Assembly (NCBI RefSeq): GCF_002287075.1 | Contig: NZ_NSKE01000003.1 | Location: 248,001 to 312,000 of the forward strand | Direction of reading: 5' to 3' | Length of the DNA: 64,000 nucleotides | Source: Fodinibius salipaludis | GTDB lineage: Bacteria > Bacteroidota > Rhodothermia > Balneolales > Balneolaceae | In this document: piece after piece, positions 37,235 to 48,318 of the stretch | Layout: each line of letters begins with the position of its first letter | Numbering within the stretch: the first letter of the stretch is position 1 | Program-made: the position numbers and the translations under genes | The notes under the pieces: generated by a model | What the model was told of the DNA's origin: nothing | Seen by the model: the letters and a program-made list of their open reading frames with translations, nothing else | The model's database searches: none

Positions 37235-38197
37235 ATGACTGAGAATATCGAACTGCAGGATAGTAATCACGATTTTACCCACAAGCATTTGTTGGGACTG
37301 GCGGATTATTCCAAAGACGATATTTTATTTGTACTGGAACAGGCCAAGTATTTTCGGGAAATCCTGGATCGGCCTGTCCCCAAGGTGCCGACCCTTCGTG
37401 ACAAGACTATTGTGAATCTTTTTTATGAGGACAGTACCCGAACGCGGCTTTCTTTTGAGCTGGCACAAAAGCGCATGGGGGCAGATGTGGTCAACTTCTC
37501 CAAGGGATCGTCGAGCGTTAAAAAAGGAGAATCGCTCAAAGATACTATTCGCAATATTAGCTCTATGAAAATTGATATGGTGGTAGCCCGCCACAAAAGC
37601 CCTGGTGTACCTCACTTCTTAACACGTTGTGTAGATGCAGCTATTATTAATGCAGGCGATGGCGCACATGAACATCCTACTCAGGCCCTGCTTGATATGT
37701 TTACCATGCAACAGGTGTATCCTGATTTAACGGGTAAAAATATTGCCATTATCGGGGATATTGCTCACAGTCGTGTGGTGCGCTCAAATGTTATCGGGTT
37801 GCTGAAGTTAGGGGCCAACGTTACGGTTTGTGGGCCCAAAACTATGATGCCGGCTTATGTTGAAGAGCTCGGTGCTGACGTATCTTATAATATTGATGAG
37901 GTTTTGAGTTGGTGTGATATTGCCATGGCGCTTCGTATCCAATTAGAGCGACAGGAAGGCGGTACCGAGCTGTTTCCCAGTATTCGCGAGTATCACCAGC
38001 TTTTTGGGATTACGATGGAGCATCTCGAGGAGTATCCTGATTTTACCATCATGCATCCTGGTCCGGTGAATCGGGGAGTAGAAATGGAGAGCGAAGTGGC
38101 AGACAGTGATCGATCAATAATCTTAAGCCAGGTTACCAATGGCGTGGCTGTACGAATGGCTATTCTTTATTTGTTAAGTGGCAGAACACGCGTTTAG
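37235..38197 (+). CDS. pyrB: Aspartate carbamoyltransferase catalytic subunit
   Basis: 320 residues. It condenses carbamoyl phosphate with aspartate, the committed step of pyrimidine synthesis. The carbamoyl-phosphate site is DSTRTRLSFELAQKRMG; GSSSVKKGESLKDT, GDGAHEHPTQALLDMF and TIMHPGPVNRGVEM are the other conserved elements. It directly follows pyrR with no gap. No regulatory pyrI subunit is present, consistent with a Bacillus-like, PyrR-controlled enzyme. The remaining pyr genes are not in the window. Confidence 0.97.
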   Translation: MTENIELQDSNHDFTHKHLLGLADYSKDDILFVLEQAKYFREILDRPVPKVPTLRDKTIVNLFYEDSTRTRLSFELAQKRMGADVVNFSKGSSSVKKGESLKDTIRNISSMKIDMVVARHKSPGVPHFLTRCVDAAIINAGDGAHEHPTQALLDMFTMQQVYPDLTGKNIAIIGDIAHSRVVRSNVIGLLKLGANVTVCGPKTMMPAYVEELGADVSYNIDEVLSWCDIAMALRIQLERQEGGTELFPSIREYHQLFGITMEHLEEYPDFTIMHPGPVNRGVEMESEVADSDRSIILSQVTNGVAVRMAILYLLSGRTRV

Positions 38198-38276
38198 TGA
38201 GTTCTCGTTAGGATGTGTTTTTTCTTAGGTTAACAGCCACAAGAGAGGAACAGGATTGAGGTTAAAAAAATATTTT

Positions 38277-39467
38277 ATGGATAAGGAATTAGATCGTTTA
38301 CAGCATCTTTCTTCATTTGCTTTGGATTATGATTCGTATCACGAAAAGTTAGAACCATTTGTAGAACTGGCTAAAACGATAACGGATTCCCCGGTTTGTG
38401 AAATAAATATCATCGATGCCTATAATCAGTGGACGATTGGACGAACGGAGAAAGATCTGAAAGTAATTCCTCGTGAAGAAAGTATTTGCCATGATACTAT
38501 TGAGAAAAACAAACCATATGAGATAAAAAATCTACAAAAAGATAAACGTTATCGTGACCGCGATTATGTTGTAGGGGCGCCCTACTTTCGCTATTACTGC
38601 GGAGTGCAGCTTACCACTAAAGCAGGTGTTAATGTTGGTTCAATTTGCGTGCTGGATCAGAAAGAGAAAGGAATTTCTGATAAGAAAAAAGAGCATCTGC
38701 AGTATCTTGCTAATTTAGTTGTTCAGTATCTGCAGAAAGATCAGTTGGTTTATCGGTCCAAAGGAAAGCTGCATGATCTTCAGCAGCGTTTTCGAACATT
38801 AAATCATGACCTCCGGAGTCCGGTAAATGGCATTGTAGGCATTGTTGATTTGTTACTTACTGACGAGGATGAGGTAGAAGTATCAGCCGAAGACTTGTTG
38901 ATGATTAAAGATTGTGCGGAAGCTATTGTTGATGAAATTGATAGCGTTTTATCACCAGATAAGAAGACAAGTAACAAAAGTGGGAGTGATAACATATTAT
39001 TGGAAGGTGTTTTTGAAAAAGTAAAACGCCTGAATGCCCCGCCAGCTCAGAACAAAGAGATAAGTTTTAAGGTAGAGAGTCAAACTGATAATAATTATAG
39101 TATTTCAGTTTATTCTTCGAGAAAATTAATTCAAATTGTCAGTAATCTTGTAGCGAATGCTATTAAATTTACGGATAACGGAGGGCGGATTTGTGTGCGA
39201 TATGCGCTTGTTGAAAACGATGAACAGAAGGTTTTGAAGGTTATAGTAGAAGATAACGGTATTGGAATGAATGGAGATAAAGTTGATAATTTTAATAGCG
39301 GAGAAAAAGTCGTAGGATCTTCTGGAACAGCGGGAGAGGAAAGTTTTGGAATCGGGCTTCAACATGTAAGACAATTGGTTGCTGAATTGGGTGGTAAAAT
39401 TTCAGCAGAGAGCTCTATTGGCGAGGGAACTGAATTTACGGTATTGGTAGAAGCTCAGAATTTGTAG
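38277..39467 (+). CDS. Soluble GAF-domain sensor histidine kinase
   Basis: 396 residues from ATG 38277; a TTG at 38256 would add seven codons with no better support. No membrane helix is seen. A GAF domain spans about 10-155 (ESICHDTIEKNKPYEI and YCGVQLTTKAGVNVGSICVL match GAF-kinase proteins). HisKA has His177 in LNHDLRSPVNGIVG. The HATPase domain shows NLVANAIKFTDNGG, EDNGIGMN and FGIGLQHVRQLVAELGG. It has no receiver gene directly beside it, but the receiver at 42115 lies 2.6 kb away at the head of the convergent glycosyltransferase operon and is a plausible partner. That pairing is inference. Confidence 0.9.
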   Translation: MDKELDRLQHLSSFALDYDSYHEKLEPFVELAKTITDSPVCEINIIDAYNQWTIGRTEKDLKVIPREESICHDTIEKNKPYEIKNLQKDKRYRDRDYVVGAPYFRYYCGVQLTTKAGVNVGSICVLDQKEKGISDKKKEHLQYLANLVVQYLQKDQLVYRSKGKLHDLQQRFRTLNHDLRSPVNGIVGIVDLLLTDEDEVEVSAEDLLMIKDCAEAIVDEIDSVLSPDKKTSNKSGSDNILLEGVFEKVKRLNAPPAQNKEISFKVESQTDNNYSISVYSSRKLIQIVSNLVANAIKFTDNGGRICVRYALVENDEQKVLKVIVEDNGIGMNGDKVDNFNSGEKVVGSSGTAGEESFGIGLQHVRQLVAELGGKISAESSIGEGTEFTVLVEAQNL

Positions 39468-39503
39468 GGGAGTAATGCTTGAATTTAAATAGAATGACAG
39501 GAA

Positions 39504-40910
39504 CTACTCTTTAAACCCTTTTCGAATCATTTTGCCCCAGCTTTTCTTTCCCTTAAAAAAGTCAATGAGTCCTTTGAACTGCCACCACGAGTGAATCTGT
39601 CGATACCCTATATTCTCAAGGAGAGAGTACAAACTCAAAATAGCGACATCTTTAAAACTACTGTAGGTTTTGAATGCGACCTCTTCAGCTAAAACAGCAA
39701 TGAGCGAAACAACCATCCCATAAATGATAGAAACCCCCAGGAATAACAGGATAAAGGTCAGGCTGAAAAGGTCTGGAAATGAAATTATGATAATCAGGTA
39801 AACGTAACTTAGCAGGTTGACAATGGGGCCTAATAACTCAAAGAAGAGAAAGAAAGGCATTACGAACATCCCGATATGTTTGTAGGTGGGATTAAATAGC
39901 ATGTATTTATGTTGCCACAGTGAATCGGCCAGGCCCCGGTGCCAGCGGTTGCGCTGGTTACGTAAACTCTTGTAGTCAGTAGGAACTTCCGTCCAGCAGA
40001 TAGGTTCTGGTAGGAATCGAATCTGGTAATCCTCATTATTACGAAGGTGGTAGCTGTGCAGGCGGACAATCAGTTCAATGTCTTCGCCCACGGTATCAGT
40101 AAGATAGCCCCCTACTTTAATAACAGCTTTCCGGTCAAAAATTCCGAATGCTCCCGAGACAATTAGCAGACTTTTGAAGTAATCCCACCCTACACGCCCA
40201 AATAAAAATGCCCGAATATATTCCACCGACTGCAGTCTCCCCCAGAAACTTTTGGGAACGTGTATTTCTTTTATTTCTCTATTTCTTATCTGGCATCCGT
40301 TGATAACCCGGACGACCCCTCCTGCAGCAATGGTGTTTTTATGTTCTATAAATGTTTGGATAAGCTTTTTAAGCACATCTTGTTCCAAAATAGAATCTGC
40401 ATCAATCGAACAAACCAGATCAGTTTCGGCAATATTGATTCCGGCATTAAGGGCATCAGCTTTGCCCCCGTTTTCCTTATCCACGACGGTGAGCATGGGG
40501 GTATTGGGGGACCGATAGATGCCACGGATATGTTGATGTTCGATTTGCTCTTCAAAGTAAATATCGGTTTCCGTCAGGCCAAAATGATCAATAATTCGTT
40601 GTAGCGTATCATCGGCGCTCCCGTCATTTACGACAATGATATGATATTCAGGATATTCCAGTTTGAGCAACGATTCCACCGACTCTACAATATTATCTGC
40701 CTCATTATAGGCGGGAACGAGAATGCTGATAGATTTAAAGAGCTCGGTCTTAAAAAGGGCGTCTGCTTCAACAACACTGCGGTGTAACATTTGTTTGCGA
40801 ACATAGAGTAGGGCGCCGATAACTAACGCCAGATACACAGTGTTAATGGTGATAAAATAGCCTATAATGAACTGCTCAACAATATTGAATAACGAAAAGC
40901 TATCAAGCAT
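39504..40910 (-). CDS. Membrane GT2 glycosyltransferase, PgaC/YaiP-like polysaccharide synthase
   Basis: 468 residues. One N-terminal membrane helix (about 10-35) is followed by a GT-A domain and three or four C-terminal helices (about 330-430). The processive-synthase motifs are SILVPAYNEADNIVESVESL, IVVNDGSADDT, VCSIDADSILEQD, TVGEDIELIVRL and the QxxRW-type RNQRNRWHRGLADSL. This layout is shared by PgaC/IcaA poly-GlcNAc synthases and YaiP. It should polymerise a sugar from a nucleotide-sugar donor at the inner membrane. Its start overlaps the HEAT-repeat gene by 8 nt, so it is translationally coupled to it. Sugar identity cannot be read from the sequence. Confidence 0.93.
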   Translation of the reverse strand: MLDSFSLFNIVEQFIIGYFITINTVYLALVIGALLYVRKQMLHRSVVEADALFKTELFKSISILVPAYNEADNIVESVESLLKLEYPEYHIIVVNDGSADDTLQRIIDHFGLTETDIYFEEQIEHQHIRGIYRSPNTPMLTVVDKENGGKADALNAGINIAETDLVCSIDADSILEQDVLKKLIQTFIEHKNTIAAGGVVRVINGCQIRNREIKEIHVPKSFWGRLQSVEYIRAFLFGRVGWDYFKSLLIVSGAFGIFDRKAVIKVGGYLTDTVGEDIELIVRLHSYHLRNNEDYQIRFLPEPICWTEVPTDYKSLRNQRNRWHRGLADSLWQHKYMLFNPTYKHIGMFVMPFFLFFELLGPIVNLLSYVYLIIIISFPDLFSLTFILLFLGVSIIYGMVVSLIAVLAEEVAFKTYSSFKDVAILSLYSLLENIGYRQIHSWWQFKGLIDFFKGKKSWGKMIRKGFKE

Positions 40911-42099
40911 GGGATTTATTGAGTCGGTGATTGAGGGCTATTTTGATGCCGGATGTAATATCCAAAATTTTATCTAAATATAAATCAAACTGTTCATGTG
41001 ATCTGCTTCTGATATCAATATCTGTGAGTGATCGCAGTGTTTCTTGAATAAATTTTGTCAGTAATACTATGCGATTTTCCTCTTCCGTTACAAGTTCATA
41101 AATAATGGCTTTTCGGATCGGGAATTCAGCATTTAACAGGTGTTGTAGTAAAAATGAGATATTTTCTTCTCCTCCAAAAGTGCTGAGTGTTTTTATGCTG
41201 GCTAATCTAATAGGAATGCTTTTTTTCTTCTTCCAATAGCTCTTGATAACAGCATCGGCTTCGGTATGATATAATTCTCCAAGAGCAGTAATAAGTCCTC
41301 GAATTAGGGGAAACTTTTCAGGATTATAATGAATCCGTTTTAGGTATTGATATAAAAACTCTCCACATTCATAAAATTGCTGATATCCCATATATCGTAC
41401 GATGATATTTTTAACGTTGGGATCTATTTTTTTTAGCAGTACATCTTTGAGGGCTTCGCCAACTTGTCCACGCTCCTCGGCCAGTCCCGAATCAAATACA
41501 TGAAGAAGTTCGGCAACCATTAGTTCTGAGATATCAGTTCGTTTGAAGAATCTCAATAAGGCGCTTTTACGTATTGACCAGTCCTCGGCTGATTGCAATG
41601 CTTTGGTAGCGGCAAAGGCTAATTTCAAGTTGTTTGATTTGCTTACAGTAATAAGTTTGGCTAAAACTCGGTTGTCAAGATGGGTGCTTTTTTGAAAGTA
41701 GATACAGGCGTATATTTTGGAATCGGTAGAAGATTGAAACAGCTTATCCCGGTAAAAAGAGGCAAAGGTGGGATGTTTAATTAAATCATTGAGTCGCTTG
41801 CGTTCTGTGCCATCCAGAATATCGTCAAGTTCATTAAGCAGATTTATAAAAAATGTATAATCTTTCGTTCGCTTAGTTATTTTTTTGATGATATCATCAG
41901 CACTTAGCGGTGGGCCGGATTGTTCTGCGTAATCCAAGAGAATCGAAAAAAAGTAATCCCGAAATTTTTGCTCATACCTTTTCCAGTACTGCTGTTTCCT
42001 TCGGGTCCAATAAGTATAACCGAGTAGAAAAAAGAATAGGAGGGTCAAAAAGACAGTTAGTCCAATCAGCGACTGTAAGGCAATGTTGAAGTCAAACAT
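40903..42099 (-). CDS. HEAT-repeat protein with N-terminal membrane anchor
   Basis: 398 residues. A single membrane helix at about 8-30 (SLIGLTVFLTLLFFFLLGYT) leads into a mostly alpha-helical cytoplasmic region. From about 130 to 370 it contains HEAT-like units, for example AKLITVSKSNNLKLAFAATK and IRLASIKTLSTFGGEENISF. HEAT arrays are usually protein-binding scaffolds. It lies between the receiver gene (15 nt) and the GT2 gene (8-nt overlap) in one operon. I infer that it links the receiver to the synthase, a role played by PilZ or other partners in known exopolysaccharide systems. No enzyme motif is seen. Confidence 0.82.
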   Translation of the reverse strand: MFDFNIALQSLIGLTVFLTLLFFFLLGYTYWTRRKQQYWKRYEQKFRDYFFSILLDYAEQSGPPLSADDIIKKITKRTKDYTFFINLLNELDDILDGTERKRLNDLIKHPTFASFYRDKLFQSSTDSKIYACIYFQKSTHLDNRVLAKLITVSKSNNLKLAFAATKALQSAEDWSIRKSALLRFFKRTDISELMVAELLHVFDSGLAEERGQVGEALKDVLLKKIDPNVKNIIVRYMGYQQFYECGEFLYQYLKRIHYNPEKFPLIRGLITALGELYHTEADAVIKSYWKKKKSIPIRLASIKTLSTFGGEENISFLLQHLLNAEFPIRKAIIYELVTEEENRIVLLTKFIQETLRSLTDIDIRSRSHEQFDLYLDKILDITSGIKIALNHRLNKSHA

Positions 42100-42114
42100 G
42101 CCACAATATACGCT

Positions 42115-42579
42115 CTAAGCGGCTTTTGTCAATAATTTTCGGATGCGTGCTGTAAATTCTTTGGGTTGAAAAGGCTTGGTAATATATTCATCGGCGGTTA
42201 GGTCAAAACCGTGCTCAATATCTTCGGAACGTGATTTTGCAGAAACCAAGACCACTTTTGTCTGGTTGAATTTTTGATCTTCACGAACTTTTTTAAGGAT
42301 TTCAAATCCATCCATGCCGGGAAGCATTAGATCTAAAATAATAAGTTGTGGAATATGCTTTCGGGCATACTCCAGGGCTTCAATTCCATTAGCTTTACTT
42401 GTAATCTCATAATCGAACTCTTTAGATACGAGTCTGCTAATTAGTTTTCTGCTGAGATCATCATCATCGACAATAAGAATTTGCTTTTTGGGCATTGTTG
42501 ATTCACTTCCCCCCATACTTTTATCTGTTGAATTATGTGCAACCCCAGTTAGCTTTAGATAAGAGTCCATGCTTTTCAT
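42115..42579 (-). CDS. Single-domain response regulator (CheY-like receiver)
   Basis: 154 residues. About 30 unordered residues precede a complete receiver domain: ILIVDDDD acidic cluster, phospho-acceptor Asp83 in LIILDLMLPGMDGFE, Ser/Thr in VVLVSAKSR and Lys in YITKPFQP. No DNA-binding or enzyme output domain follows, so it must act by protein contact. GAGG about 6 nt before the ATG supports the long start at 42579. It heads the operon with the HEAT protein and the GT2 synthase. I infer that it conveys a phospho-signal to them, possibly from the GAF kinase at 38277. Confidence 0.92.
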   Translation of the reverse strand: MKSMDSYLKLTGVAHNSTDKSMGGSESTMPKKQILIVDDDDLSRKLISRLVSKEFDYEITSKANGIEALEYARKHIPQLIILDLMLPGMDGFEILKKVREDQKFNQTKVVLVSAKSRSEDIEHGFDLTADEYITKPFQPKEFTARIRKLLTKAA

Positions 42580-42761
42580 AACTGCCTCACTATTTTGCCA
42601 TTAATAATTTTTGTGGCAGTTTAGTATTTATGTCACTGTACAAAATATAGCGATTTTAATTAAAAAATCTTAATGTTTATTAAGGGATTCTTATCTTGGA
42701 GTGATCGCAAAGCAGTTAAATTCTATGCTAATTTCACAAAACGCTGTAATACAATACGGTA

Positions 42762-45230
42762 ATGAATAAAAGTACAGCTCTGGATTCTTCTTTTTTACCA
42801 CAGGCAGTGGTGATTTTTATTGTGCTGATTGGGGTGCTCCTTTTGGGGCGTAGTTATGAAATTGGAGTTGGAATGTGGAAGTTCGGAAGCGAGTTCGCAG
42901 ACGGTTCATATTTTTGGGCTTTACTGGTTAGAGATTTTCAGTTCAGCGTTATTTTGCTTCCCTTTCTATTGTTTTTCTCAGTTGGGTTGAAAAGAGTACA
43001 AAAGTCCAGCACAGCTAATAAAGTGATGGCTCATATTATCGCTTTTATCGGGATAGTGAATATATTGTTAATATCATATTTTGGAGCAACACATATGCCT
43101 TTGGGCTCAGAATTCTGGGCCTACTCGCTGACCGAAATGGCAAACACCGTTATTGCAGCCGAGCAGGTGACAGTAGTGGGCATTGGTTTTATTATAGTTG
43201 CTTATGTGTTGATGTATGGGGTTGTTAGAACAACACAATCAACGCATATCTTTCAGGAGAATCGGTCTAAAATAGCTTATGGCGGTCTGTTTGGAGTTAT
43301 AGGTCTTTTTGTGATTTCATTCTTTGCAACGGGCATTGATGCTACTCCGGCCCAGCAGGAAAAACATGCAAACAAGCTGTCATATTTTATTCATCAGAGT
43401 GTGGGGACCGTTGATTGGAACGGAACGGATTCTACAGATTATGATCCGGAAGAATACCCATTGCTACAGACGGCAAACTATGAGAAAGATGTACTGGGTC
43501 CTTTTTTCGAAGAATTTGAGCGTCCACCCAATATCGTGTTTCTGTTAGTGGAAAGTTTGGGCGGAGAGTTTATTGGTCCGTCCGGGCAATGGACAGGCTT
43601 TGCTCCCTATTTGGATTCCCTTTCTAAGCAGGGATTGTATTGGGAGAACGGTCTTAGCCTTTCGGGCCGTACATTTGGGATGATACCGTCACTTTTAGGA
43701 TCGCTTCCATTTGGCCAACATGGATTTATGGAACTTGGTCCCAACTATCCCAATCACCAATCACTTATCAGTATTCTTGATAAACGAGGTTATCATACTG
43801 CTTTTTACAGTGGCTATGATACGTATTTCGACGGGCTCGATTTCTTTTTGGATTATCAGGGGACCGACTATGTTTTAAATAAACAACGCTTGGAAAAACT
43901 GCTTCCGGAAGCGAAAAACGAATCGAATTACTGGGGTGTTGATGATAAAACTATGTTCGAATTCTCTGCGGAATTATTGGATACTGCAAATACATTTCCC
44001 CGACTGGATATCTACCATACCCTACAAAGCCATTCCCCATTTACCGTTCCGAATGCAGAAAAGTATAAACAGGAGTTTACAAGTCGTCTTGAAAGCTTGG
44101 AATTTTCCGAGAAGAAAAAGCAGTCTTATCGACAGTATCAAAAAGAGTTTACAACATTATTATTTGCCGATCAGGCCGTCAGAGATTTTATGGAGTCTTT
44201 TAAGAAACAACCACAATTTGAAAACACGATTTTTGTGATTACGGGTGATCACTGGCTTATTCCGGTACCGCAGACAACAGCTATTTCGCGCTATCATGTG
44301 CCCATCATAATATATTCGCCTAAACTAAAAGAGCCGGTTCATTTTAAGTCGGTCAATACCCATGCCGAAATTACTCCTTCACTTGTGGCAATGTTGGATC
44401 AAAAAACTGATTTGAATATGCCCGATGAGGTACACTGGATTAGTGAGCTAATGGATACGACCAGAACCTTCCAAAGCACACAGTCTGTACCGTTTATGCG
44501 TAATAAAAATCGTATTTCAGATTATCTGGATGGGAATTATTACTTATTTGGGGATGAAATTTACTCGGTGAGTGAAAATCTTTCGCTTAGCCGTAGCGAC
44601 AATTCACGGAAAAATGAGGAGTTGCGTAAAAAGCTGAATAGGTTTAAATCGGTAAATAACTTTGTGGTACAAAATAACCGATTGTATCCCATCCAAAATA
44701 AAATTCCAAGTTCATCAGATAGATATGCTTTTTTATCAGAATATGATACGCTATTTGCAAAACTGGATTCGTTGTCGCTAACCATTGATGAACAATTTGA
44801 GCGGGCGCGCCAACGGGCTTTTAATGGGGAGTATGAGGTGGCTCGTGCTATTGCAAAGCGTATCCTGTTGCAAGCTCCCGAATACCAGGATGTACGAATT
44901 TTGGTTGGTAGAACGAACGCTTGGCAGGGAAACTACGAGCAGGCCGAAAGTTATTTCAGGGAGGTGTTGGACGAAGATGTAACCTACGAAGATGCTTATA
45001 ATGCCTATACGGATAATGAGTTTTGGCAGGGCGATTACGAGATGGCTTTGCAAGTGATTGACCAGGGGCTTAAACACTATCCCAAAAATAAATCATTTTT
45101 AGAACGAAAAATTAAAATCCTTGTCCAGTTAGATAAGCTGAATCAAGCCCAGAAGACGTATGATGAGCTTAAGAAGTTGGATTCTAACTATAAGGAACTG
45201 CCGAACTTGAAGAAATATATCGGTGAATAA
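42762..45230 (+). CDS. LTA-synthase-like membrane phosphotransferase/sulfatase with C-terminal TPR domain
   Basis: 822 residues. Five membrane helices (about 13-30, 48-74, 87-110, 137-157, 171-192) precede an extracytoplasmic alkaline-phosphatase-superfamily domain (about 250-590), as in LtaS. Metal and catalytic features are NIVFLLVESLGGEF, the likely nucleophile Thr304 in SGRTFGMIPS, the His of LQSHSPFTVP and ITGDHW. The family moves phosphoglycerol or phosphoethanolamine from lipids to glycans, or hydrolyses such esters. Residues about 676-822 are TPRs (ARQRAFNGEYEVARAIAKRI) closely resembling those of the next gene. That fusion is unusual for LtaS-like proteins. It starts 182 nt from the divergent receiver operon, with the YaiO-like gene 32 nt behind. 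Confidence 0.88.
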   Translation: MNKSTALDSSFLPQAVVIFIVLIGVLLLGRSYEIGVGMWKFGSEFADGSYFWALLVRDFQFSVILLPFLLFFSVGLKRVQKSSTANKVMAHIIAFIGIVNILLISYFGATHMPLGSEFWAYSLTEMANTVIAAEQVTVVGIGFIIVAYVLMYGVVRTTQSTHIFQENRSKIAYGGLFGVIGLFVISFFATGIDATPAQQEKHANKLSYFIHQSVGTVDWNGTDSTDYDPEEYPLLQTANYEKDVLGPFFEEFERPPNIVFLLVESLGGEFIGPSGQWTGFAPYLDSLSKQGLYWENGLSLSGRTFGMIPSLLGSLPFGQHGFMELGPNYPNHQSLISILDKRGYHTAFYSGYDTYFDGLDFFLDYQGTDYVLNKQRLEKLLPEAKNESNYWGVDDKTMFEFSAELLDTANTFPRLDIYHTLQSHSPFTVPNAEKYKQEFTSRLESLEFSEKKKQSYRQYQKEFTTLLFADQAVRDFMESFKKQPQFENTIFVITGDHWLIPVPQTTAISRYHVPIIIYSPKLKEPVHFKSVNTHAEITPSLVAMLDQKTDLNMPDEVHWISELMDTTRTFQSTQSVPFMRNKNRISDYLDGNYYLFGDEIYSVSENLSLSRSDNSRKNEELRKKLNRFKSVNNFVVQNNRLYPIQNKIPSSSDRYAFLSEYDTLFAKLDSLSLTIDEQFERARQRAFNGEYEVARAIAKRILLQAPEYQDVRILVGRTNAWQGNYEQAESYFREVLDEDVTYEDAYNAYTDNEFWQGDYEMALQVIDQGLKHYPKNKSFLERKIKILVQLDKLNQAQKTYDELKKLDSNYKELPNLKKYIGE

Positions 45231-45262
45231 CGTTTTGCCATGTATTAAGGGTTAATAATTGA

Positions 45263-46513
45263 ATGGATGTTATGAGAAAATTAGTAATGATCTGCGTGGG
45301 ATTCTTATTGATTAACAGTGCTATGGTATTAGCGCAAGGAACGGAGGACCTTTCTGTTGATGAGCTGTATGAAAAAGCTCGTACGGTTGCTTTTGATGAC
45401 GGCGATTATGATGCGGCGCGTGAGTTTGCATATAAAGCGCTGGATCGAAGTCCCGATTACCATGGTATTCGAATTTTCGTGGCGCGGCTGTATAACTGGG
45501 AAAGCAATTATAAAAAAGCTCAAGAGGAGTTGAGCTATGTACTGGGCAAGGATCCCCAGAACCGACGGGCACTGATGGTTTTGGTGGATACCCAGACTTG
45601 GTCGGGACAAAAGGATGCAGCTCTAAAAACTGTTAACAAGGGATTGGAGTACTATCCTGACGACACAGAATTTATGTTGAAGAAAGCGTCTGTTCTTTAT
45701 GGAATGGAAAGCTATGAGGAGGCGGAGCAGGCTTATAAACGTATTCTTGCTGATGGTTCGGGCAATCGAAAGGCGCGGGAAGGATTAGAGGATGTCCAGT
45801 TACAGCAAATGAAATATCGAGCAACGATTTCTTATCGTTACGATCGGTTTCAAACTATTTTTGATCCTTGGCATTTTACGCAATTCGGATTAACACGGCA
45901 AACTCCCATTGGTTCCATAACCGGTCGGGTTGAGTATGCTCGGCGGTTTGGCTCGGATGGGGTACAGTTTAATGTAGATGCATATCCATCAATAGCAAAA
46001 GGATTATATGCGTATGTAAGTGGTGGTTATTCGCAGGCTTCTATTTATCCGGATTACCGATTTGGCTTTTCGCTTTACAAGTCGTTGCCTTCTGCTTTTG
46101 AGCTCGAAGCAGGTATGCGATATTTGGATTTTGGGACCTCACAAACTGATATTTATACCGTATCGCTTACAAAATATTTGGGAAGCTATCTTTTTACTGC
46201 ACGTACATACCTGGTGCCGTCATCGGGAGGAACATCGAAGTCCTTGAATATTGTAACGCGGCGATATTTTGGGACGGCAGAGTCTTATCTAAGTTTAAAT
46301 GCCGGTTATGGATCAGCCCCGACAGAAATTGGAACTTCATCTGGGACAATAGCAATTGATGCATTAGATTCGTGGTCGGTAAGTGTTGACGGGCAGTATC
46401 CACTATCTAAGGTTTGGTTTATTGGCGGAAATATGGGATTTGATTCCTCTGAATACCCGAATTTTACAAGGGAACGCTTTAGTGCAAAAGTGAATATTTC
46501 CTATCGTTTTTAA
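45263..46513 (+). CDS. TPR plus outer-membrane beta-barrel protein, YaiO family
   Basis: 416 residues. A signal peptide ends near 24 (NSAMVLAQ|GT), counted from ATG 45263; ATG 45272 is also possible. TPR units span about 28-180 (YEKARTVAFDDGDYDAAREF). A 12-to-14-strand-type beta-barrel (about 185-416) ends in FSAKVNISYRF, the terminal Phe typical of outer-membrane proteins. YaiO and PgaA share the TPR-then-barrel plan, and PgaA exports poly-GlcNAc. It lies 32 nt after the LtaS-like gene, whose TPRs are clearly related. I infer that it is the outer-membrane exit or docking part of a polysaccharide system made with the GT2 protein. Confidence 0.88.
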   Translation: MDVMRKLVMICVGFLLINSAMVLAQGTEDLSVDELYEKARTVAFDDGDYDAAREFAYKALDRSPDYHGIRIFVARLYNWESNYKKAQEELSYVLGKDPQNRRALMVLVDTQTWSGQKDAALKTVNKGLEYYPDDTEFMLKKASVLYGMESYEEAEQAYKRILADGSGNRKAREGLEDVQLQQMKYRATISYRYDRFQTIFDPWHFTQFGLTRQTPIGSITGRVEYARRFGSDGVQFNVDAYPSIAKGLYAYVSGGYSQASIYPDYRFGFSLYKSLPSAFELEAGMRYLDFGTSQTDIYTVSLTKYLGSYLFTARTYLVPSSGGTSKSLNIVTRRYFGTAESYLSLNAGYGSAPTEIGTSSGTIAIDALDSWSVSVDGQYPLSKVWFIGGNMGFDSSEYPNFTRERFSAKVNISYRF

Positions 46514-46523
46514 GAAGTATAGC

Positions 46524-47495
46524 CTATTCCATAGGCGGGACTTTTTCCGGTGATGATGTTCTCCACCGTGCCAGTACAATTCCGGCTATCACCAGTGCTG
46601 AACCTATATATTGTAGAAAGGTTAGTTGTTCATTTAGCAGAACGATGCCAAAGAAAAGTCCCATTACGGGCACAAGGTTTTGGTAAGTTGCCGTATGAAC
46701 AGCTCCAACAGTTTGAAGACCATAGTTCCAGATGAGATATGCCACTCCTATTGATAACAGTCCGCTGTACACCACTCCGCCATAGGCCGCTGCCGAAATT
46801 TGTGTCCACTGAAGATGTATAATATTTGGCAAGCCAATCAGAAAAAGAACAATTGCGCCAATGGTGGCCATAATAGCCGAAAATTGAATGGGTGTATATC
46901 GTGTAAGGAATGATTTGGATAAAATGGTGTAGCCTCCCCAGACAACAGCGGCTGCGATGATGATCAGGTCCCCAAAGAAGGTGTCAGAACTCAGGGAGAA
47001 GGGATCTTGCCCTCCCGACACAATAAATATGATACCACCAAAAGCTGCAATAACTCCAAGTGTTTTAAAGATGTTCATTTGTTCCAGCTTAAAGAAGTGA
47101 CTTATTAGGGCTACCCAGATGGGAATAGTGCCGAGCATGACAGCAGCATTGGCGGCGTAGGTATAGTCAATACCGATAATAAAAAGTCCCTGGTAAATAA
47201 TATTGCCCAAGAGTCCCATCCCCAGCAGTGGGAGCCAGTCTTTCTTCGGGATGGTAAACAGTTGTCGACGATAGAATAGTACGGCCCAGATAATGGCTGC
47301 GGCAAAAATAAACCTGAGCCCATTAAAACTAAGGGGATCAATTTCAACAAGGGAGTATTTTACAACCGAAAAATTCAGTGCCCAAATTAGGGCCACCAAA
47401 AAGAGTGAGGCTTCAACGACTGTTTTCTTGGATATGTTCAAGGATAATTGACCGGATTGAAATTGTAAGCACGAAAGGTAGGGGATTATTCTCAA
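46524..47495 (-). CDS. EamA (DMT) family permease
   Basis: 323 residues with ten predicted membrane helices in two EamA repeats (ALIWALNFSVVKYSLVEIDP starts the first, YSGLLSIGVAYLIWNYGLQ marks the second). The first 18 residues look non-membranous and poorly conserved; a TTG at codon 19 (LNISKKTVVEAS) may be the true start. It ends with SSPEKVPPME. Substrate unknown. It converges on the YaiO-like gene (10 nt between stops) and is divergent from the tetR gene, so it could be read from the same control region. Confidence 0.9.
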   Translation of the reverse strand: MRIIPYLSCLQFQSGQLSLNISKKTVVEASLFLVALIWALNFSVVKYSLVEIDPLSFNGLRFIFAAAIIWAVLFYRRQLFTIPKKDWLPLLGMGLLGNIIYQGLFIIGIDYTYAANAAVMLGTIPIWVALISHFFKLEQMNIFKTLGVIAAFGGIIFIVSGGQDPFSLSSDTFFGDLIIIAAAVVWGGYTILSKSFLTRYTPIQFSAIMATIGAIVLFLIGLPNIIHLQWTQISAAAYGGVVYSGLLSIGVAYLIWNYGLQTVGAVHTATYQNLVPVMGLFFGIVLLNEQLTFLQYIGSALVIAGIVLARWRTSSPEKVPPME

Positions 47496-47555
47496 AATCT
47501 CTTATTCCAATTAATGAGATTTATTGCTGGATTGGGAATTATATAATTAAAAAGG

Positions 47556-47586
47556 TTGTGCCCTGATAATAATATTATTAACTTTG
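47556..47586 (+). promoter_or_regulatory. Bacteroidota-type promoter of tetR
   Basis: TTG at 47556-47558 is followed after 20 nt by TAACTTTG at 47579-47586. This fits the TTTG-N19/20-TAnnTTTG promoter recognised by the primary sigma factor of Bacteroidota. Transcription would start about 47593, some 33 nt before the tetR ATG. Confidence 0.55.
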
Positions 47587-47595
47587 GTCACTTTC

Positions 47596-47608
47596 TGACT
47601 GATAGTCA
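47596..47608. promoter_or_regulatory. Candidate autoregulatory operator of the TetR protein
   Basis: TGACT-GAT-AGTCA is a perfect 5-bp inverted repeat with a 3-nt spacer, just downstream of the predicted tetR transcription start. Its position would allow repression. It is short, so chance is possible. Confidence 0.35.
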
Positions 47609-47625
47609 TTTTTAATGAGTTTTGT

Positions 47626-48318
47626 ATGAGCAAAAAAGATCGAAAGGCGCGTGAAAAAGAGCGCCGAAGAAATCAGATAATTGATGCCGCCGAGCGGGTT
47701 ATTTTTTCAAAAAGCCTGGAGCAGGCTACCATGGATGAGATTGCCGAAGAGGCCGAGCTCAGTAAAGGTACATTATATCTATATTTTGAAAACAAAACGG
47801 ACCTGTATATTGCCATTACCCAACGTGGTTCTGACTTGTTAAACAGTAAGTTTGCAAAGGTTTTTTCAGGCGCACACGATCACACGGGGCTTGAGCTTAT
47901 CAGAATGATGGGGGAAACCTATTTAAATTTTGTGGAAGAGCACCCGAACTATTTTACGGCTTTTATGTATTACGAGTCTATAAGTAACGTAGAGGTGCTT
48001 GGAGACAGTAAATATGCAAAGCAGTGTGACCAAAATAGGCATGAAGCCCTGAACTTTATGATCCGCGCTCTTCAAATTGGAATGCAAGATGGTTCAGTTG
48101 ATGATCGATATGAACCTAAAGAATTGGCTACGATTATTTTTGCAAGCACACGTGGGCTTACTGCTATGACCCATGCCAGTGGCCGAGGGCATTATTTTGA
48201 ACTCTTGGATGAAATGGAAGTGGGTATGAGTACACTTTTTGAAAACTTTTTAAATCTTCTGGTAGAGGGAATGGCATCAAAAAAGGAATTAAAAGATATG
48301 GAAAATAGTTCAAAATGA
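47626..48318 (+). CDS. TetR/AcrR family transcriptional regulator
   Basis: 230 residues. A basic start (SKKDRKAREKERRRNQIIDA) leads into the TetR DNA-binding domain at about 15-65: AERVIFSKSLEQATMDEIAE and LSKGTLYLYFENKTDLY. The C-terminal ligand-binding part is all helical. Such regulators repress efflux operons until a ligand binds. It is followed after 106 nt by the tolC-adaptor-RND operon in the same direction, which is the clear target. Inverted repeats at 47596-47608 and 48356-48381 are candidate operators. Confidence 0.93.
   Translation: MSKKDRKAREKERRRNQIIDAAERVIFSKSLEQATMDEIAEEAELSKGTLYLYFENKTDLYIAITQRGSDLLNSKFAKVFSGAHDHTGLELIRMMGETYLNFVEEHPNYFTAFMYYESISNVEVLGDSKYAKQCDQNRHEALNFMIRALQIGMQDGSVDDRYEPKELATIIFASTRGLTAMTHASGRGHYFELLDEMEVGMSTLFENFLNLLVEGMASKKELKDMENSSK

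What the first reader, a model, noticed from the sequence alone, without database searches (positions are those of the whole stretch)
38277..46513. Possible new two-component-controlled polysaccharide synthesis, modification and export system
Seen: a minus-strand operon (receiver, HEAT-repeat membrane protein, PgaC-like GT2 synthase, with overlaps or 15-nt gaps) is divergent from an LTA-synthase-like phosphotransferase with TPRs and a TPR-barrel YaiO-type protein. A soluble GAF kinase converges on the first operon. Known: PgaC with PgaA (TPR-barrel) makes and exports poly-GlcNAc, BcsG (a phosphatase-superfamily enzyme) adds phosphoethanolamine to cellulose, and E. coli yaiO lies beside the GT2 gene yaiP. 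Inference: these genes make, phospho-decorate and export a polymer under control of the kinase and receiver. I know of no characterised system with this gene set.
Basis: partly seen in the sequence, partly recalled or inferred. Interest (0 to 1): 0.75.

Follow-up and report, generated by a model that had tools for sequence, protein, structure and literature searches.

The report
Conserved polymer synthesis and export cassette
Five neighbouring genes form one movable and widely conserved unit in the Bacteroidota phylum that most likely builds a sugar polymer at the inner membrane, decorates it with a phosphate group and exports it, switched on by a phosphorylation-sensing protein rather than by the usual second messenger; nobody seems to have studied it.

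Summary
The genes are as described. Five of the six (receiver, HEAT, GT2, LtaS-TPR, YaiO; 39504-46513) form one cassette. In 99 sampled Bacteroidota genomes (GTDB sense) the GT2 ortholog and YaiO occur in exactly the same 26, with a HEAT gene beside the GT2 in each. Close LtaS homologues occur in 10 of these and nowhere else. In 52 further loci with long flanks the order receiver-HEAT-GT2-LtaS-YaiO holds on one strand in 47. GT2 and LtaS are fused into one protein at three places on the GT2 tree. Within the genus the cassette is present or absent as one 7-kb block at a pyrB-tetR site. The GAF kinase is not part of it: it occurs there without the cassette, and the cassette without it. YaiO models as TPRs plus a 14-strand barrel; its best solved match is the cellulose exporter BcsC. 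The LtaS-type enzyme is nearest to OpgB (phosphoglycerol transferase), not BcsG. The stand-alone receiver and the lack of GGDEF proteins in this genome suggest phosphorylation-gated control through HEAT, as EpsW does elsewhere; that step, the polymer and the phosphate group are inferred. I found no paper on this gene set.

The parts
39504..40910 (-). GT2 processive synthase, PgaC/hyaluronan-synthase type, 468 aa
   Evidence: Pfam GT2 7.6e-26; best NCBIfam model PgaC_IcaA at 158 bits, under its 422 cut-off; invariant D96, D100, D170, D172, D277, Q319-R320 and W323 across 23 orthologs; profile covers hyaluronan synthases over 14-405
40903..42099 (-). membrane-anchored HEAT-repeat protein, 398 aa: N-terminal TM helix, then cytoplasmic alpha solenoid
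   Evidence: HEAT_2 5.6e-8; AF2 pLDDT 87, helix 4-59 then about 19 helices; next to GT2 in 26 of 26 genomes; relatives L107 and L201 begin with a signal-peptide-like stretch and a long N-terminal part before the TM, which puts the HEAT part in the cytoplasm
42115..42579 (-). stand-alone receiver (phospho-acceptor D83, K135), no output domain; an internal start near 42495 is possible
   Evidence: Response_reg 1.4e-27 and nothing else; in 77 receivers 5' of HEAT, D83 kept in 76, K135 in 77; 74 of 77 are single-domain by length
42762..45230 (+). LtaS/OpgB-type phosphotransferase: TM region, alkaline-phosphatase-fold catalytic domain (256-545), C-terminal TPRs
   Evidence: PF00884 1.5e-34, TPR_19 1.2e-11; E264, T304, H424, D496-H497 invariant in 11 homologues; matches OpgB at 50 bits, BcsG at 0.2
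45263..46513 (+). YaiO-type outer-membrane protein: signal sequence, about 4.5 TPRs, 14-strand barrel
   Evidence: PF19413 3.5e-59, TIGR04390 1e-51; AF2 pLDDT 91; Foldseek best BcsC 9b8a E 2.7e-12, PelB in PelBC rank 4
39504..46513 (.). the whole cassette, present or absent as one block between pyrRB(-kinase) and the DMT/TetR genes in the genus
38256..39467 (+). soluble sensor histidine kinase, a neighbour but not a cassette member (start probably 38277)
   Evidence: HATPase 3.6e-20; follows pyrB also in genomes whose site lacks the cassette (L215, L216), absent next to the cassette in G081 and G138

Best explanation
The block 39504-46513 encodes one synthase-dependent polysaccharide machine. 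Shown by sequence comparison: the five genes are inherited, moved and fused together. Inferred: the GT2 protein polymerises a common nucleotide sugar and passes the chain through its membrane part; the LtaS/OpgB-type enzyme transfers a phospho-group, most likely glycerol phosphate from phosphatidylglycerol, onto the emerging chain on the periplasmic side; the TPR parts of this enzyme and of YaiO guide the chain; the YaiO barrel lets it out. The synthase is gated from the cytoplasm: a histidine kinase (not necessarily the neighbouring one) phosphorylates the stand-alone receiver, which docks on the membrane-anchored HEAT solenoid beside the GT2 and turns the synthase on or off. REC and HEAT thus take the place that c-di-GMP with PgaD, or a PilZ domain, has in PNAG and cellulose synthesis.
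For: One unit: GT2 ortholog and YaiO in the same 26 of 99 genomes, chance about 2e-24 if genomes were independent; HEAT adjacent in all 26; LtaS-type at E <= 1e-70 in 10 of these and in no other, the next hits dropping to 1e-28. 52 named loci with flanks: REC 52, HEAT 52, YaiO 52, GT2 51, exact same-strand order in 47. GT2-LtaS single ORFs in L109/L111/L114, L112 and L193, three places on the tree. Block presence/absence at the pyrB-tetR site in the genus. Synthase: QRNRW and GED motifs. Transferase: catalytic residues invariant, OpgB nearest. Exporter: model of 14-strand barrel plus TPR, BcsC and PelB among the best matches. Control: receiver without output domain, phospho-Asp kept; no GGDEF in this genome or in 17 of the 26 cassette genomes; precedent EpsW, a stand-alone receiver that activates a phosphoglycosyl transferase post-translationally (PMC12802240).
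Against: No polymer, phosphate group or protein contact has been measured. The LtaS gene is missing from 16 of the 26 genomes, so decoration is optional. The GT2 falls far under the PgaC cut-off, so the sugar is unknown. A 14-strand barrel is narrower than the 16-18 strands of known polymer porins (my knowledge), so the YaiO role could be something else. E. coli YaiO is too remote for BLAST and is itself uncharacterised. A few LtaS-TPR copies lack the rest in the DNA held (L124, L129, L155, L180). HEAT sequence is poorly conserved (10-25% identity), so its docking role rests on position and topology.
Confidence: 0.68

Rival explanations
1. The GT2, HEAT, receiver and YaiO genes are one polymer system, but the LtaS-type enzyme does not decorate the chain: it attaches the polymer to a lipid or to the cell surface, or makes a separate polyglycerol-phosphate.
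For: LtaS itself polymerises glycerol phosphate, and the gene is absent from 16 of 26 cassette genomes, so the core works without it. The substrate contacts cannot be assigned with certainty.
Against: In the alignment to the Bacillus LtaS-type structure 2w8d the FWNR stretch reads F-D in this family, as in the Gram-negative homologue 3lxq; OpgB, which decorates a glucan, is the nearest E. coli protein. Repeated fusion to the GT2 fits action on the emerging chain.
Confidence: 0.2
2. The receiver acts on transcription or on another target through a partner; the HEAT protein is only a structural subunit of the synthase, like PgaD.
For: HEAT is universal beside GT2 while a receiver was not found directly beside it in a few loci (L112, L113, L118, L120).
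Against: None of the 77 receivers found 5' of HEAT shows a DNA-binding part: 74 are single-domain by length, and of the three long ones two that were scanned hold only receiver, GGDEF or Hpt domains. The receiver lies directly 5' of HEAT with short gaps in most loci.
Confidence: 0.3
3. The kinase next door is the cognate kinase and the six genes are the system.
For: Kinase and cassette are adjacent in the window and in G124; GAF kinases or hybrids homologous to it stand near the receiver in L108, L110, L111, L114, L122, L149; a kinase within six ORFs upstream in 24 of 52 loci.
Against: The kinase keeps its place after pyrB in G130, which has no cassette, and in G143, whose cassette is elsewhere; G138 has the cassette at pyrB with the kinase far away; G081 has none below 1e-40.
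Confidence: 0.2
4. Not a polysaccharide system: the GT2 adds single sugars to a lipid or protein and YaiO is a small-molecule channel.
For: Product unknown; YaiO barrel also resembles OmpG, CymA and FadL-type channels.
Against: GT2 has the processive QxxRW motif and matches hyaluronan synthase over its membrane parts; TPR plus barrel is the architecture of BcsC, PgaA and PelB, and BcsC is the best Foldseek match.
Confidence: 0.1

Closest known systems
PNAG system PgaABCD (E. coli)
   Same: PgaC is the nearest E. coli GT2 tested (123 bits to the family profile); TPR-barrel exporter
   Different: far under the PgaC equivalog cut-off; no PgaB deacetylase or PgaD in the cluster, no GGDEF protein in this genome; REC, HEAT and LtaS-type genes instead; 14-strand barrel
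Cellulose Bcs system with BcsC and BcsG
   Same: BcsC is the best structural match of YaiO; a phosphatase-superfamily enzyme decorates the chain
   Different: BcsA is a poor match (35 bits), BcsG scores 0.2 bits; no BcsB, BcsZ or PilZ among the cluster proteins
NGR system NfrA/NfrB (PMC8669469)
   Same: two-protein logic: GT2 synthase plus outer-membrane protein
   Different: NfrB is the most remote of the four E. coli GT2s tested (15 bits); control there is by c-di-GMP
OpgB (phosphoglycerol transferase I) and LtaS
   Same: nearest characterised relatives of the phosphotransferase; same catalytic residues
   Different: C-terminal TPRs homologous to those of YaiO, and genetic fusion to a GT2 synthase in some species
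E. coli yaiO-yaiX-yaiP-yaiS
   Same: YaiO-family barrel near a GT2 gene
   Different: YaiP 24% identical and lower scoring than PgaC; acyltransferase and deacetylase instead of LtaS, no REC or HEAT; uncharacterised
EpsW-EpsZ of Myxococcus xanthus (PMC12802240)
   Same: stand-alone receiver that controls polysaccharide synthesis at the protein level
   Different: target there is a phosphoglycosyl transferase of a Wzx/Wzy pathway, without a HEAT adaptor

Membership tests
PNAG (pga) system | PgaC above the equivalog cut-off | tested here: not met
   158 bits against 422.3
PNAG (pga) system | PgaB deacetylase and PgaD in the cluster | tested here: not met
   none among the cluster proteins; the rest of the genome was not searched for them
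PNAG (pga) system | control by c-di-GMP | tested here: not met
   no GGDEF protein in this genome
Synthase-dependent exopolysaccharide pathway (general kind) | processive membrane GT2 | tested here: met
   D, D, D, QxxRW invariant; aligns along hyaluronan synthase; activity not tested
Synthase-dependent exopolysaccharide pathway (general kind) | outer-membrane TPR-barrel protein encoded with the synthase | tested here: met
   transport itself not tested
Synthase-dependent exopolysaccharide pathway (general kind) | a polymer that depends on these genes | not testable with these tools
   needs mutants
YaiO family (PF19413 / TIGR04390) | score above curated cut-off | tested here: met
   200 bits against 23.9; 176 against 32
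LtaS/OpgB-type phosphotransferases | metal and nucleophile residues (E, T, D-H, H) | tested here: met
   E264, T304, H424, D496, H497 invariant, aligned with 3lxq and 2w8d
Lipoteichoic acid synthase proper | equivalog cut-off | tested here: not met
   40 bits against 970
BcsG phosphoethanolamine transferase | sequence relation to BcsG | tested here: not met
   profile 0.2 bits, E 0.09
NGR (NfrA/NfrB) | NfrB-type synthase with its c-di-GMP-binding domain | tested here: not met
   only GT2 domains in Pfam, 15 bits to NfrB
Stand-alone receivers acting post-translationally (EpsW type) | single phosphorylatable receiver domain | tested here: met
Stand-alone receivers acting post-translationally (EpsW type) | direct contact with the biosynthetic enzyme | not testable with these tools
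   no complex prediction on hand

The most novel reading that the evidence does not exclude
A phylum-wide class of polysaccharide synthases gated by phosphorylation: a stand-alone receiver acting through a membrane-anchored HEAT adaptor switches a processive GT2, doing in bacteria without GGDEF proteins what c-di-GMP does elsewhere, with the chain decorated by a phosphoglycerol transferase that is sometimes part of the same polypeptide as the synthase.
Probability: 0.5. Interest if true: 0.78.

Novelty: new variant of a known kind. Interest (0 to 1): 0.66.

Why it matters
Known synthase-dependent polysaccharides of Gram-negative bacteria are mostly controlled by c-di-GMP. Many Bacteroidota, this genome included, have no GGDEF protein, so how they control such synthases is open. 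This cassette gives a concrete, genetically compact answer to test, in cultured genera such as Flavobacterium, Maribacter, Zobellia, Polaribacter and Gracilimonas. It would also give a first function to the YaiO family and to a HEAT protein family, and it predicts a phosphate-bearing surface polymer, which matters for phosphorus budgets of marine Bacteroidota and for biofilm formation.

Tried and rejected
GAF kinase as a cassette member: rejected on synteny in the genus. BcsG-like phosphoethanolamine transfer: rejected in favour of OpgB-like. YaiP/YaiO of E. coli as orthologs: GT2 nearer to PgaC, YaiO too remote for BLAST. c-di-GMP as regulator: no GGDEF in this genome; in three Rhodothermia genomes a REC-GGDEF-REC protein takes the receiver's place, but its GGDEF motif is degenerate. 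Sigma-70 promoter and terminator scans: no excess over shuffles. Paper searches for YaiO, HEAT with GT2 and receiver, and phosphoglycerol with Bacteroidetes polysaccharide gave no paper on this gene set; a pipeline survey of biofilm operons mentions neither YaiO nor HEAT. The HEAT model matched only generic HEAT/ARM solenoids. The ~390-aa companion protein of some loci has no Pfam match.
Full report
WHAT IS THERE. The window lies in a 3.58-Mb genome (G000, contig C23). Its nearest named relatives are uncultured Aliifodinibius genomes, family Balneolaceae. Pfam and NCBIfam give GT2, HEAT, stand-alone receiver, LtaS/sulfatase-type enzyme with TPRs, YaiO barrel with TPRs, and histidine kinase.

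IS IT ONE SYSTEM? I searched 99 near-complete genomes of the phylum (Bacteroidota in the GTDB sense) with each part. YaiO is found in 26. GT2 orthologs below 1e-80 are found in the same 26 genomes and in no other. Under independence the chance is about 2e-24, though relatedness of genomes makes this number too strong. Neighbourhoods fetched for these loci show a HEAT gene beside the GT2 in every one (in G008 it had been hidden by ORF choice and was read directly). LtaS-type matches below 1e-70 occur in 10 genomes, all among the 26.

A scan of named genomes with the LtaS alignment gave 80 loci, mostly Flavobacteriaceae, with Balneolaceae, Cytophagales and some Gemmatimonadota. Of the 52 with at least 6.5 kb on both sides, all have receiver, HEAT and YaiO, 51 have GT2, and 47 have the exact order receiver-HEAT-GT2-LtaS-YaiO on one strand. 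The loci were picked by LtaS similarity, so this says how constant the setting is, not how common the system is. Exceptions outside that set exist (L124, L129, L155, L180). The divergent layout of the window is therefore a rearranged form of what is a one-strand operon in most loci.

GT2 and LtaS form one ORF in L109, L111 and L114 (1134-1145 aa), in L112 (1260 aa) and in L193 (1296 aa). On a GT2 tree of 92 sequences these fall in three separate places (quick tree). Repeated fusion is strong evidence that the two proteins work at the same spot.

Within the genus the evidence is sharper. GT2 and LtaS are both present in G000, G081, G124, G138, G143 and both absent in G115, G130, G135. The site between pyrRB and tetR-tolC reads: pyrRB-kinase-cassette-DMT-tetR in G000 and G124; pyrRB-cassette-DMT-tetR in G081 (across a contig break inside HEAT); pyrRB-cassette-tetR in G138; pyrRB-kinase-DMT-tetR in G130; pyrRB-DMT-tetR in G135; pyrRB-kinase-tetR in G143, whose cassette is on another contig. 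So 39504-46513 comes and goes as a block, and the kinase is a separate tenant of the same variable site.

WHAT THE PARTS ARE. GT2: catalytic aspartates and QxxRW are invariant. Against E. coli proteins the family profile scores PgaC 123, YaiP 56, BcsA 35 and NfrB 15 bits. It is PgaC-like but not PgaC (158 of 422 bits). Phosphotransferase: E264, T304, H424, D496 and H497 are invariant and line up with the LtaS-type structures 3lxq and 2w8d. Where 2w8d has FWNR, this family and 3lxq have F-D, so lipoteichoic-type chain growth is less likely than OpgB-type transfer; OpgB scores 50 bits, BcsG 0.2. Its C-terminal TPRs are homologous to those of YaiO. YaiO: AF2 model at pLDDT 91 with about 4.5 TPRs and 14 strands; the best Foldseek matches are two structures of BcsC, with PelB of PelBC at rank 4; by VIA-align the barrel alone also resembles OmpG, CymA and FadL-type channels at Z 18-21. 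HEAT: AF2 model at pLDDT 87, one long N-terminal helix and an alpha solenoid. Basic residues follow the membrane helix, and relatives L107 and L201 start with a signal-peptide-like stretch and a long N-terminal part before it, so the solenoid is most likely cytoplasmic. Receiver: phospho-acceptor Asp in 76 of 77 and Lys in 77 of 77; 74 of 77 are single-domain by length.

HOW IT LIKELY WORKS. Shown: linkage, fusion, conserved active sites, exporter-like model. Inferred: polymer synthesis by GT2, phosphoglycerol-type decoration by the LtaS-type enzyme on the periplasmic side, export through YaiO, and gating by the phosphorylated receiver through HEAT. The gating idea rests on three things: the receiver has no output domain; the HEAT protein is at the membrane and its gene is beside the GT2 everywhere; and there is no GGDEF protein in this genome or in 17 of the 26 cassette genomes. 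EpsW of Myxococcus gives precedent for a stand-alone receiver acting on a polysaccharide enzyme (PMC12802240). In three Rhodothermia genomes the receiver is replaced by REC-GGDEF-REC with a degenerate GGDEF, again without a DNA-binding domain. Accessory genes vary: a DUF4838 protein marks one GT2 clade with full support, which suggests that tailoring enzymes are exchanged around a fixed REC-HEAT-GT2-YaiO core.

NOVELTY. I found no paper on this gene set or on YaiO function; the library lacks many subscription papers. The plan (synthase, periplasmic TPRs, barrel) is that of known synthase-dependent systems, so this is a new variant of a known kind. The control module and the fused phosphotransferase are what set it apart.

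LIMITS. ORFs were called mechanically. The co-occurrence number ignores relatedness. The 14-strand count is from a model. No complex could be predicted, and no chemistry is available.

Noticed in passing
L112:4826-7051, L113:5827-8025, L116:6285-8519, L117:5141-7465, L120:5284-7494, L146:17747-19981, L166:17618-19855: A DUF4838 protein (732-774 aa) follows YaiO in one GT2 clade (support 100), including a second cassette copy in two Flavobacterium species that lacks LtaS. Candidate glycosidase for the polymer.
   Followed up: partly
L201:11929-13107, L107:10655-11827, L103:11048-12217, L101:13770-14960: A protein of about 390 aa with an N-terminal TM helix and no Pfam family sits in the cassette of several lineages, three of them with LtaS lacking TPRs.
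   Followed up: partly
L099:7167-8954, L102:6395-8035, L104:5907-7532; L210:7549-9171: In a Rhodothermia genus the receiver is REC-GGDEF-REC with a degenerate GGDEF motif, the only GGDEF of those genomes. G003 keeps this gene and a HEAT gene but has no GT2 or YaiO there: a likely remnant.
   Followed up: partly
L117:7404-10445 and L120:7397-10210: YaiO proteins of 1013 and 937 aa with several extra TPR blocks, so the periplasmic part can be much longer.
   Followed up: no
L118 and L119, 4.4-14 kb: A variant in f15 genomes with an NDP-sugar epimerase gene beside HEAT and a GAF/PAS-GGDEF protein after GT2, so some lineages may use c-di-GMP.
   Followed up: partly
L144, L161, L202 (HEAT genes): Maribacter/Zobellia-type HEAT proteins reach 700-1187 aa through a long acidic insert between HEAT blocks.
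   Followed up: no
window 37235-48318: The interval between pyrB and the tetR-tolC-hlyD genes is a variable site in the genus where kinase, cassette and DMT transporter come and go independently.
   Followed up: yes
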